64,000 bases of DNA from a virus: IMG/VR virus record IMGVR_UViG_3300025009_000050, positions 180,053 to 244,052 of that record, one strand, 5' to 3'. Shown here one piece after another: positions 3,001 through 57,492 of this stretch (its first letter is position 1; the number at the start of each line of letters is the position of its first letter). Under the pieces are notes generated by a model. The model was not told the origin of the DNA, searched no databases, and saw only the letters and a list, made by a program, of their open reading frames with translations. The position numbers were made by a program, and so were the translations under genes.

Positions 3001-6000
3001 TTAATCTCTCTGCAATGGTTCTATTCAGGTTTACAGAGTCAGTTAAGTTCAAACCTGAGATGTCCTTCCCAGCTAGGAATTCTTTTATTCCTTCAAAGTA
3101 GATTACTTCACTACGCTGTCTTATACTAGCATGACTTAGGTTGCGTATCTTCCTAGTATCCATTACTTCATCGGAGTCAAGGAAATTGGCACCAGATAAG
3201 TCTTTAAGTACTTTGTTCTGAGCCCAGTTGACAAGTGCCTGTGCTTGTGCATAGTCTCCTTTCAACATTGCTTCTTTAACTCGTTTAGATATACCAACCT
3301 GAGATTGTAGAATCTTATCGAAGCTTGTTTCAACACCAATGTTCTTACCATCAAGTGTGAAGTCCATCTGGTTAATTCTCATAACCCTACCAACAGTAAG
3401 AATCCTTCTTTCATCCACCAATGGGATGTTAACCTTAACTACATCGCTATTATTCATTATCTGTTCTACTGTCTGCTTACCTACTGTTGCTGCTTTCTTC
3501 TCATCATATAGAGCAAAGATAAAACCCTTATTGTCAGGTGATGACAATATAGTCCCATCTATATTTGCATCTGTAAGATACCTTGATAGTAGCTTCTTTA
3601 TTGGTTCTTCTGCTTTCCTATTAAGCCCGAATAAAGGCCCTAGTCTTTTTAGTGGAGAAAGCTGTTCATGAATAATAGCATTATGCGCTTCTAACATCTT
3701 AGCAAACTCTTGGTTTGCCGCTAGGTTAGGAACAAAAGCTTTATCTATCTTCTGCCATGCACTACTACCACGTCTTTGTCCTTCATCTAGCGCATGATTA
3801 GCTACCAACCGCATTTGATCAGGGGTAAGCTTTTCCCATATGCCTCCATTATTGGCATCAACATGGGCAACCTTATATGACAAGAACTCATTAGCTAAGT
3901 TCTTAGCTTGTATGTCGTCTATCTTCATACCAGAAACAATATCATTAGCTATCCTAGTCCTATCAAAAAGCTTTGCTGCTATTTGCTTAAGTACAAAGTT
4001 ACTTTCTCTCGGACCTTGCTTCTGGATCTCTGATAGTCTTAGAAAGTTAGTAACTTCAGTACGATCTAATATATGCTTACCACCTAACTTATTTATTAGC
4101 ACTGGTAGTTCGATTTTGTCGATGGGTCTTTTGGTGATTTGCCTTAGCTGTGACACTATACCTTTATAACTACCAAGATTAAGAACTATATTATCTGATA
4201 GTTGTAACATTCTATTGTTAGTTGTAGTCTTAATAACTTTCTTAGCTGGACTAATCCCACCAGTAGCTTTACGTAAGTCAGGTATTTGGACCCTACCTTC
4301 CATTATGTCTTGTAGGGCAGTAAGGGCAAAGTCCTTCTGTACTCCTTTAAGACTTTGGAATGTTCCGCTACTAATGACAGCATTAATCATTCCTCTCTCA
4401 GCTCTTAGCCTATCTTGCATATAGTAGAAGTTTCTAGCTTGTTGCTCAGAATTGAATAGATCTTTAAATTGTCCCTTAGTTAAATCATCCATAGAAGCTC
4501 TATTGACTCCAGCTTTATCAATTGCATCAAGAGCTCTCATGTATCTCTCCGCTCTTACATGGCCTCCATCGGTATCAAAGATTCTATAATATGCACGTAG
4601 AGCTCTGTCCTTCATTCTCTCTGTCCTAGTTTCTTCACCACTGACACCAGTAATATGTTCAGCATTATATGGTACTAAATGAGAGAATATACTACGTATA
4701 CTATCGAACCCAGTACCACTAATATTCTCAGGTCTAACAAAGGTATGGTATAATCCTTCATCTACATTACGTAGGGTTAATGCCCATCCACCATGTTCAA
4801 AACCTTCAAGAGCGCCCTTCTCTATCTGCTTAAAGCTATGAATTCTGTACTCGGTATTCTTATATAGGTTCCCACTAGATATAGGCTTATCGGGGTTGTC
4901 TGAGTAAGCATCTATGAATTTGCCTGTATCATCAAGTTTATATATCCCATCGTACTTATTCTTTTCATAAGGACTTAATCCGGAAATTGAGAATAGACTA
5001 CTATCAGACTTTATTGTCTTGTTGTCTATAGCAAGTACTCCACCACTTATAGCATTCCAGTCTAATGATATGCTAGCCCCAGCTGCTATTCTTCTAGCAC
5101 TAGCTATCTTACTATTAATATTACCTCCAATGGAGTTGAGTAACATAGGTACTGCTTCAGCATCTCCACCAGCAAAGTGTTCAATTCTATTATTGAAGGC
5201 ATTAGACAATACCTCTAATGTAGTTAGACCTTGTTTCCCTCTTATCCCACCACTTAATGTCTTGTAGTGTTCCCTCATTTTCTTGTCACCAATTAGCGGT
5301 GCTATCTGTCCGATAGGGTCATGATATGCAAGGTCAATAAGTCTATTAACATCCAACGCTCTATGAGTACTATTAATGATATGTAGGTTCTTCATTAGGG
5401 TTTCAATGCTACTACTAATAGGACTCTGTGGTCCAAGAGCAGTCCTAGTCTGATTAAAGTATTCCATCATGGCAGGGATATCGTGTTCTAAGAAGTTATA
5501 CCCCATGAGGTTACCGCCATTCTTAGCTATGTTCTCTACATGATGATTTATAGCTTTAATCATGCCATCAAGATAGCTACCTGAGTTTCCATTGCCATAT
5601 AAATTTTTTAAGCCATTTCTCATCTGTGAAGTGTATGCTTTCAAATTAGTAAATGTAGATCTGTCTGGTAACTCAGATGGTGACTTAAGCTTATCTTTAT
5701 TGACAAGTCTTACATCTCCTATGCCTGGGATTGTCTCTGTCTTAAATACCTCAGAATCTTGATACCTCATTAACCACCACAGTGTACGTCTATGATCATC
5801 TGTTAATCCAGCCATTCCTGTGCTCTCTACTTGTTTGATTAAATTTTTTAGTTCTACCTTCTGCTTTTCATCTACGAAGCCAGCTAATGTCATAGTATTC
5901 ATTTTATCTAGCATTGGAGAGCCACTCTTGAGGCCATTGAACTGCCAACTAGACAAACCTACCTCAGTCATAGCAAATAGATTCATGCTCTGATTCTTTG

Positions 6001-56394: not shown

Positions 56395-56970
56395 ATGCAA
56401 TATGTTAGTTTGGAAGATAATACTTTAGATCTACAAACTGGCTCAAGAGTCTTCTCAAACTTTATATTTGACTACTTATTTAAGTATAAAGTATATCTAT
56501 TTCAATCCATAGTTGTCATTTGCATAGGAACTGACCGTTCCACAGGTGACAGCTTAGGACCGTTAACTGGACATATACTGAGCTCAATGGATAATGAGTT
56601 CCACTTGTATGGAACATTAGATAAGCCAGTTGGTGCAAGTGATTTAGAAGAAACAATTGAGATAATTAATGCTAATCACCCAGGTGCATTCATAATTGCT
56701 ATTGATGCTTGTCTTGGCAAATCAGAGAATATAGGACATGTACGCATAGAAGATGGCCCTATACACCCTGGATCTGGTGTAAATAAGAAATTACCTCCCG
56801 TAGGATGCATTCATATTATTGGAATAGTAAATGTAGCTGGCTATATGGAATACCTTGTTTTACAAAATACCAGATTGAATATTGTAATGAAGATGGCTAA
56901 CATCATAGCTCCTGCATTGAATTCAGCTATCAGTAGATATAATTTACTAATCAGTAAAACTGCTGTATAA
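56395..56970 (+). CDS. YyaC/DUF1256-family sporulation-type protein
   Basis: A 191-residue protein with the full YyaC signature: CIGTDRSTGDSLGPLTG, then YGTLDKPVGASDLEE, AIDACLG, DGPIHPGSGVNKKLPPVG and GIVNVAGYMEYLVLQNTRLN. In spore formers the family is thought to be a peptidase-like protein related to hydrogenase maturation and spore (GPR) proteases. Finding it in a phage suggests a spore-forming host and possibly interference with, or adaptation to, sporulation. Confidence 0.85.
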   Translation: MQYVSLEDNTLDLQTGSRVFSNFIFDYLFKYKVYLFQSIVVICIGTDRSTGDSLGPLTGHILSSMDNEFHLYGTLDKPVGASDLEETIEIINANHPGAFIIAIDACLGKSENIGHVRIEDGPIHPGSGVNKKLPPVGCIHIIGIVNVAGYMEYLVLQNTRLNIVMKMANIIAPALNSAISRYNLLISKTAV

Positions 56971-57000
56971 TGAGCTTGGGGCCAGCTTAGCCCCGCCAGA

Positions 57001-57076
57001 GGAGGAGAGCCTGGGTTCGAATCCCAGTAGCACTGATCATGCTATAGCCAAGTGGTCCAAGGCGCCTCCATGACTT
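57001..57076 (+). tRNA. tRNA halves in permuted order (3' half before 5' half)
   Basis: 57001-57035 reads as the 3' half of a tRNA: GGAGG (anticodon stem 3' strand), AGAGC variable loop, CTGGG-TTCGAAT-CCCAG T-arm, TAGCACT acceptor 3' strand and G73. 57038-57076 reads as the 5' half: CATGCTA acceptor 5' strand, T8, GCC/GGC D-stem with G18G19 and A21, G26, CCTCC anticodon stem 5' strand and T33. CCTCC and GGAGG pair fully, and 5 of 7 acceptor pairs form. G15 and C48 can form the Levitt pair. The acceptor strands are joined by a short loop. It could be a circularly permuted tRNA, a remnant of a tandem tRNA array, or a tRNA-like leader. The anticodon cannot be set, and the top acceptor pairs are mismatched. 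Confidence 0.55.
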
Positions 57077-57093
57077 TATCAAGGAGTGGTTAT

Positions 57094-57492
57094 ATGCAAT
57101 TCATAGTTTGTGCTTGTAGTAAGAATGTTGATACTAGAGCAGTTGATCTTCCTAATATAGAAGTTGGATTAAAACTGCTGGGTGAACTGAGAAAGGCAGC
57201 AGGTAAGGATCTTGATATCTCAGTTATTAAGTCGTATGTAAATTCTTATTCTGAATATAGAGTTGAAATTGCAATTCCTGAAAAACTTGCTATTCAGTGC
57301 AATGATCTATTCAATGATAAGAATATTGTATATATTAAGGTTCCAGATAAGCATCTTAATCAATATGCAAGTATTGTCCCAATTATAGATCTAGAAGGTG
57401 ATATCCCTTCTGCTCACATGGAGTACCATCTTGATGGAGATAAATTCATTAAGGATTGGATGGAGGCAGGATGTCCGACAACATTACTATAA
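57094..57492 (+). CDS. 132-residue protein downstream of the tRNA-like element
   Basis: Start set at ATG 57094 behind AAGGAG, seven bases after the tRNA-like 5' half. Mixed alpha/beta, with NIEVGLKLLGELRKAAGKDL and EYRVEIAIPEKLAIQC. No domain was recognised. The CTCC in the tRNA-like element could pair with this gene's AAGGAG, suggesting coupled control. Confidence 0.55.
   Translation: MQFIVCACSKNVDTRAVDLPNIEVGLKLLGELRKAAGKDLDISVIKSYVNSYSEYRVEIAIPEKLAIQCNDLFNDKNIVYIKVPDKHLNQYASIVPIIDLEGDIPSAHMEYHLDGDKFIKDWMEAGCPTTLL

What the first reader, a model, noticed from the sequence alone, without database searches (positions are those of the whole stretch)
56978..57086. Circularly permuted tRNA or tRNA-like riboregulator
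The 3' half of a canonical tRNA (T-arm CTGGG-TTCGAAT-CCCAG, variable loop, GGAGG) lies upstream of a canonical 5' half (T8, D-arm with G18G19 and A21, G26, CCTCC, T33). CCTCC pairs perfectly with GGAGG, five acceptor pairs form, and G15-C48 can pair. Chance agreement seems unlikely. Permuted tRNA genes are known in algae and some archaea; I know of none in a bacteriophage. A second reading is a switch: CTCC of the element can also pair with the AAGGAG of the 57094 gene, so the tRNA-like fold would free that ribosome site.
Basis: partly seen in the sequence, partly recalled or inferred. Interest (0 to 1): 0.88.

Follow-up and report, generated by a model that had tools for sequence, protein, structure and literature searches.

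The report
Solitary Y-RNA-type tRNA mimic in phage
A large phage carries, just ahead of a small unknown gene, a tRNA-shaped RNA element whose two halves are in swapped order; it is the same module that bacterial and phage 'Y RNAs' use to imitate tRNA, but here it stands alone, without the usual stem for the Ro60 protein, and may control the gene behind it.

Summary
A covariance model built from 23 phage permuted-tRNA modules, target left out, finds window 57001-57069 with 55.4 bits, E=3e-14 in the 244-kb genome; a strict descriptor gives 0 hits in 100 shuffled genomes. It is not a lone curiosity, nor most likely a permuted tRNA gene. The same phage has a seven-unit array of Y RNA-like cassettes, four with this module (one weak), directly upstream of a Ro60/TROVE gene, and an RtcB ligase. 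Such modules lie beside TROVE genes in other phages, including named ones. A bacterial Y RNA is already described as a circularly permuted tRNA fold (PMC11472068). What is unusual: the target lies 170 kb from the Y RNA array, in a 123-nt gap between genes, and has no flanking Ro stem (z=-0.01, against -2.1 to -3.5 for the array). Its closing strand CCTCC can instead pair with the Shine-Dalgarno of the next gene. Best reading: an orphan Y-RNA-type tRNA mimic placed in a gene leader. The leader switch is plausible but weakly supported. A true permuted tRNA is unlikely: five acceptor pairs, no CCA, no uninterrupted canonical anticodon loop.

The parts
57001..57069 (+). Circularly permuted tRNA-like module (T-arm, capped acceptor, D-arm, closing 'anticodon' stem)
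   Evidence: Model R1 (target excluded) 55.4 bits, E=3e-14; descriptor 0/100 shuffled genomes
57001..57005 (+). GGAGG, 5' strand of closing stem (tRNA positions 39-43)
   Evidence: Pairs 5/5 with 57065-57069; this stem covaries in 23 phage modules
57011..57027 (+). T-arm CTGGG TTCGAAT CCCAG
   Evidence: Direct reading; model alignment
57028..57044 (+). Acceptor hairpin TAGCA-ctgatca-TGCTA (3' strand, cap loop, 5' strand)
   Evidence: Five Watson-Crick pairs; same capped acceptor in array Y RNAs and other phages
57047..57063 (+). D-arm GCC AAGTGGTCCAA GGC with G18G19, A14, A21
   Evidence: Direct reading; nearly identical to the D-arm of array Y RNA U3 (GCC AAGCGGTCCAA GGC)
57065..57069 (+). 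CCTCC, 3' strand of closing stem (positions 27-31); also anti-Shine-Dalgarno
   Evidence: Pairs with 57001-57005, or its CTCC with GGAG 57083-57086
57066..57086 (+). Competing hairpin CTCC-A-TGA-cttta-TCA-A-GGAG that hides the Shine-Dalgarno
   Evidence: -5.8 kcal/mol alone; P 0.74-0.99 in longer leader folds
57081..57086 (+). Shine-Dalgarno AAGGAG of the downstream gene
   Evidence: Direct reading; 7 nt before ATG 57094
57094..57492 (+). Downstream ORF, 132 aa from ATG, function unknown
   Evidence: ORF list; no Pfam, PHROG, phage or viral-contig match
56978..56994 (+). Hairpin GGGGC-cagctta-GCCCC at the likely 5' end of the leader
   Evidence: Predicted in folds from 56978
56943..56971 (+). 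Promoter-like TTTACT-17-TATAAT; expected transcript start about 56978
   Evidence: Consensus scan only, not above chance number in region
56395..56970 (+). Upstream gene, DUF1256/YyaC-like spore protease relative
   Evidence: Pfam DUF1256 E=2.3e-58; PHROG spore protease

Best explanation
The element is a tRNA-mimic module of the kind found in bacterial and phage Y RNAs: T-arm, an acceptor stem capped by a loop, D-arm, and a closing stem in the place of the anticodon stem, in circularly permuted order. Here it is an orphan: no Ro60-binding stem flanks it, and it sits in the 123-nt leader between a YyaC-like gene and the 57094 gene. Shown: the module, its homology to the phage's own Y RNA modules, the absence of a flanking stem. 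Inferred: it is transcribed from a promoter-like site ending at 56971, folds into a tRNA shape and is bound by a tRNA-recognising factor (tRNA modification enzyme, tRNA nuclease, or an RNase that processes the leader). Inferred with less support: because its closing strand CCTCC also pairs with the Shine-Dalgarno, formation or stabilisation of the tRNA shape changes translation of the 57094 gene.
For: Model R1 built without it: 55.4 bits, E=3e-14, close to the array Y RNAs at 58.8, 66.0 and 67.9 and above the weak fourth at 36.1. All module helices covary across 23 phage modules, closing stem included. Y RNA array U1-U7 (C1:66572-67395) with covarying Ro-type stems, Rfam YrlA hits and a TROVE/Ro60 ORF starting right behind it. 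Same modules beside TROVE genes in Streptomyces phages BRock and LuckySocke, Arthrobacter phage Atuin, Caulobacter phage CcrColossus, Brevundimonas phage Kabachok. D-arm almost identical to array unit U3. No flanking stem: z=-0.01. CTCC/Shine-Dalgarno pairing P=0.74-0.99 in free leader folds; about 3% of 87 GGAG-led ORFs of the genome have a Shine-Dalgarno this paired.
Against: No relative of either neighbour gene with this leader was found, so conservation of the leader arrangement is untested. RNA folding z-scores are ordinary. With the module enforced the model still half-hides the Shine-Dalgarno by other weak pairs. No expression data. The promoter-like site is no more than chance would give in the region.
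Confidence: 0.6

Rival explanations
1. A stray or decaying copy of a phage Y RNA: the tRNA-like module of array unit U3 was duplicated into the operon and has lost the Ro stem; it does nothing now.
For: D-arm nearly identical to U3; no Ro stem; no T33 in the 5'-side loop, unlike most TROVE-linked modules.
Against: All 18 pairs of the four helices and the tRNA-typical nucleotides are intact and the score is near that of working array units, while array unit U4 scores far lower. T-arm, acceptor and closing stem differ from U3 yet still pair, which points to selection on the fold.
Confidence: 0.22
2. A genuine permuted tRNA gene: the transcript is cut in the cap and joined at the anticodon loop to give a tRNA (loop AT+CCAGA would read CCA, tryptophan).
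For: Re-joined halves are called a tRNA by ARAGORN; a loop spliced after T33 would have T33, CCA, G37, A38; the phage encodes an RtcB ligase.
Against: Five acceptor pairs with mismatches at 1-72 and 2-71, no CCA; no uninterrupted canonical anticodon loop on either side; no bulge-helix-bulge evident; homologous modules in other phages often have 5-bp acceptors closed by GAAA loops, i.e. built to stay closed.
Confidence: 0.06
3. An ordinary Y RNA whose Ro60-binding part is a divergent stem formed with neighbouring sequence.
For: The phage has Ro60; the fullest fold pairs the end of the upstream gene with the start of the 57094 gene.
Against: Flank pairing is no better than shuffles (z=-0.01, rank 142/300), and neither Ro-stem motif of the phage Y RNAs (AGTGT...GTTACTTC or CAGCAA) is present; the partner strand would lie in the ribosome site and start codon.
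Confidence: 0.1

Closest known systems
Bacterial Y RNAs of the YrlA type (Rfam RF02553; Chen et al. 2014; structure PDB 6CU1, described as a circular permutation of tRNA in PMC11472068)
   Same: Same permuted order T-arm, capped acceptor, D-arm, closing stem; same tRNA-typical nucleotides; the same phage has such RNAs beside Ro60.
   Different: No Ro60-binding stem, not next to the Ro60 gene, lies in a gene leader; Rfam YrlA does not match it.
Y RNAs of phages with TROVE/Ro60 (mycobacteriophages after Chen et al. 2014, cited in PMC12282133; Listeria phage CKA15, proposed in PMC12282133)
   Same: Phage-encoded; the TROVE-linked phage modules checked here have the same structure.
   Different: Those lie close to the Ro60 gene; those checked here mostly have the extended Ro stem.
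Permuted tRNA genes of algae and archaea (PMC3978253, PMC3218864)
   Same: 3' half precedes 5' half with a short intervening stretch.
   Different: Those yield working tRNAs by splicing at a bulge-helix-bulge motif; here acceptor, CCA and anticodon loop are defective.
tRNA-mimicking translational operators (E. coli thrS leader; own knowledge)
   Same: tRNA-like element ahead of a gene, next to its ribosome site.
   Different: thrS is in normal order and bound by the gene product; no such link is known here.

Membership tests
Y RNA tRNA-like module (YrlA effector domain) | Permuted T-arm, capped acceptor, D-arm, closing stem with tRNA-typical nucleotides | tested here: met
   Model R1 55.4 bits, E=3e-14, target not in the model
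Bacterial/phage Y RNA | Extended Ro60-binding stem around the module | tested here: not met
   Flank duplex z=-0.01 for the target against -2.1 to -3.5 for the array units; motifs AGTGT..GTTACTTC and CAGCAA absent
Bacterial/phage Y RNA | Encoded near the Ro60/TROVE gene | tested here: not met
   TROVE at C1:67.4-69 kb, target at C1:237 kb; the genome does encode Ro60
Rfam YrlA RF02553 | Match over gathering score | tested here: not met
   No match up to E=5; array units 39-43 bits, also under the cut-off of 69
Permuted tRNA gene | Seven-pair acceptor stem and CCA end | tested here: not met
   Five pairs, then A-C and C-T; ATCA in place of CCA
Permuted tRNA gene | Canonical anticodon loop (T33, purine 37) | tested here: inconclusive
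   5' side CGCCAGA lacks T33, 3' side ATGACTT has T37; a spliced AT+CCAGA loop would pass
Permuted tRNA gene | Joined mature tRNA in RNA | not testable with these tools
   No RNA data
Translational riboregulator | Mutually exclusive pairing of the Shine-Dalgarno with the element | tested here: met
   CTCC 57066-57069 pairs with either the GGAGG closing strand or GGAG of the Shine-Dalgarno
Translational riboregulator | Conservation of both pairings in relatives | tested here: inconclusive
   No relatives of the locus found

The most novel reading that the evidence does not exclude
Phages have detached the permuted tRNA mimic of Y RNAs from Ro60 and use it as a stand-alone regulatory domain: here it works as a cis-acting switch in an mRNA leader that senses a tRNA-binding protein (or tRNA nuclease) and opens or closes the ribosome site through the GGAGG/CCTCC versus CTCC/Shine-Dalgarno choice.
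Probability: 0.22. Interest if true: 0.78.

Novelty: new variant of a known kind. Interest (0 to 1): 0.52.

Why it matters
It ties an odd-looking 'permuted tRNA' to the Ro60/Y RNA system, which many phages carry and whose phage role is unknown. A free-standing module without the Ro stem separates the two functions of a Y RNA (Ro binding and tRNA mimicry), so the second can be tested alone. If it controls a gene in cis it would be a regulatory use of this mimic that I know of no earlier case for. In passing, many phage Y RNA modules beside Ro60 keep an anticodon-like loop (T33 in 13, A37 in 17, A38 in 17 of 21), which suits a decoy for tRNA-cleaving enzymes, an idea already raised for YrlA (PMC7790460).

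Tried and rejected
Conventional tRNA at 56959-57035: 18.2 bits only, driven by the T-arm. Permuted group I intron carrying tRNA exons, suggested by the array repeats: dropped when the repeats proved to be Y RNA stems with Rfam YrlA hits and a TROVE gene behind them. Tandem tRNA remnants: rejected, since acceptor and closing stems complement each other fully and the model scores it like the array modules; tandem tRNA pairs can also score up to about 53 bits under R1, so ARAGORN/Rfam calls were used to tell them apart. Ro stem in the flanks: no signal. Relatives of the neighbouring proteins or of the leader DNA: none by protein patterns, by tblastn for the 57094 protein, or by blastn; DUF1256 relatives occur in other phages, whose leaders were not examined.

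Full report
Setting. The window is bases 180053-244052 of a 244,052-base virus record, a large phage. Its gene neighbours include a DUF1256/YyaC-like spore protease relative, which suggests a spore-forming host (inference). The element lies in the 123-nt gap between that gene (ends 56970) and a 132-aa ORF of unknown function starting at ATG 57094.

In genomic order no tRNA is called. Read in permuted order, T-arm, acceptor 3' strand, seven-base cap, acceptor 5' strand, T8A9, D-arm and the closing stem GGAGG/CCTCC are all present with every pair Watson-Crick. Re-joined, ARAGORN calls a tRNA. A strict descriptor for this layout hits the 244-kb genome at two places, the target and C1:66786, and hits 0 of 100 shuffled genomes.

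It has siblings in the same phage. At C1:66572-67395 there is an array of seven repeated cassettes. Each has two nested stems around conserved AGTGT, GTT.CT..TC and ATTCT stretches; the stems covary between the units (19 cells changed on both sides against 7.1 in shuffles). Four cassettes enclose a permuted tRNA-like module; two of these match Rfam YrlA (Y RNA-like) at 39-43 bits, below the cut-off of 69. The next ORF is a TROVE/Ro60 protein whose nearest solved relatives are TROVE proteins and RO60. These are best read as Y RNAs next to their Ro60 gene. The phage also has an RtcB RNA ligase; Ro60, Y RNAs and RtcB occur together in bacterial RNA-repair operons (PMC7790460).

Homology test. Permuted modules were collected from viral contigs by pattern and separated from tandem tRNAs with ARAGORN. 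Twenty-three were aligned without the target; all four helices covary, closing stem included. The model R1 then found five places above 30 bits in the whole genome: the four array modules and the target at window 57001-57069, 55.4 bits, E=3e-14. The same modules lie within a few kilobases of TROVE genes in many viral contigs and in named phages such as Streptomyces phages BRock and LuckySocke, Arthrobacter phage Atuin, Caulobacter phage CcrColossus and Brevundimonas phage Kabachok. TROVE genes occur in 274 of 50,697 phage records. So the kind is known: bacterial Y RNA structure 6CU1 superposes on tRNA with a circular permutation (PMC11472068), and Y RNAs have been reported or proposed in phages (PMC12282133, PMC7765460).

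What differs. The target is 170 kb from the array and no flanking stem is detectable: its flanks pair no better than shuffled ones (z=-0.01), while the array units give z of -2.1 to -3.5. It is therefore an orphan module, not an ordinary Y RNA. The flank test is not perfect: some TROVE-linked modules with Ro-type motifs also score weakly (L082, L090). A few other modules found here lack such a stem too (L055, L056, L072, L079, L080), so detached modules may recur.

Is it a tRNA gene? Unlikely. The acceptor has five pairs followed by A-C and C-T, there is no CCA, the 5' side offers CGCCAGA (no T33) and the 3' side ATGACTT (T37, T38). A loop spliced from both sides (AT+CCAGA) would look canonical and would read CCA; this is one of several possible junctions and is counted as a weak point in favour. 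Related modules with GAAA-capped 5-bp acceptors look built to stay closed.

Is it a switch? CTCC at 57066-57069 can close the module or pair with GGAG of the Shine-Dalgarno in the hairpin CTCC-A-TGA-CTTTA-TCA-A-GGAG (-5.8 kcal/mol). In free leader folds the second pairing has probability 0.74-0.99. Of 87 ORFs in this genome with a GGAG site, 3 have CTCC close upstream and 3.4% have a site this paired. If only sequence up to 57080 is present, the closing stem forms with P=0.92; when the ribosome site is added it falls to 0.2-0.6. That is the behaviour of a co-transcriptional competitor. However, with the tRNA-like fold enforced the model still leaves the site largely paired in other ways, and no relatives were found to show conservation. 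A promoter-like TTTACT-17-TATAAT ends at 56971, so a transcript might start near 56978, but such sites are no more common here than by chance.

Verdict. Identity as a Y-RNA-type permuted tRNA mimic: well supported (about 0.85 by my judgement). Orphan and in a gene leader: shown. Cis regulation of the 57094 gene: plausible, about 0.2-0.3. True permuted tRNA: about 0.06. New variant of a known kind.

Noticed in passing
G000 C1:66572-67395 (L010 10573-11396): Array of seven Y RNA cassettes, four with permuted tRNA modules and three without, directly upstream of a TROVE/Ro60 gene in the same phage.
   Followed up: yes
L048, L064, L070, L073, L089, L090, L092, L093, L147, L152 and others: Many phage Y RNA modules beside Ro60 keep an anticodon-like loop just 5' of the closing stem (T33 13/21, A37 17/21, A38 17/21), so they look like whole tRNAs opened at positions 31/32.
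   Followed up: partly
L066, L072, L076, L079, L080: Permuted tRNA modules inside larger (about 350 nt by eye) intergenic RNAs, some closed by long outer stems (e.g. TTAACCGGCCATGC...GCATGGCCGGTTAA in L072), with no Rfam match at gathering score.
   Followed up: partly
L124, L106, L122, L131, L141 (bacterial contigs): Two or three permuted tRNA modules in tandem (T-arm, capped acceptor, D-arm repeated), not called as tRNAs.
   Followed up: no
L100, L108, L112, L137 (bacterial contigs), L043 (viral contig): Permuted modules followed by a complete anticodon arm 3' of the D-arm (e.g. AGACC CTGTTAA GGTCT in L108), as if permuted at the variable loop.
   Followed up: no
G000 C1:3190-3940 (L011): tmRNA-like 5' part at about 3190 and 3' part (Rfam tmRNA 29.6 bits at 3882-3939) about 750 bases apart, with an intron- or tRNA-like element (acceptor TCACTGG/CCAGTGA) between them.
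   Followed up: no
G000 C1:2760-2825 (L011): A tRNA-like element in normal order without an anticodon arm (CGGGC..TAGCTAGTGGACTAG..GTAGG TTCGATT CCTAC..GCCCG), just ahead of an AAGGAGGTGA ribosome site; another leader with a tRNA-like fold.
   Followed up: no
G000 C1:59940-60100 (L010 3941-4101): Two T-arm-like hairpins inside a long TTATGATGT/ACGTCATAA stem, followed by a GGTGAAG..AGTGTAG..CTTCACC stem that resembles a Y RNA stem.
   Followed up: no
L010 9440-9660, 9830-10030, 10040-10240: Three tRNA genes apparently interrupted by long inserts (acceptors TAAGCGG/CCGCTTA, TTGAATAG/CTATTCAA, GGCCGG/CCGGTC) that match no Rfam intron.
   Followed up: no
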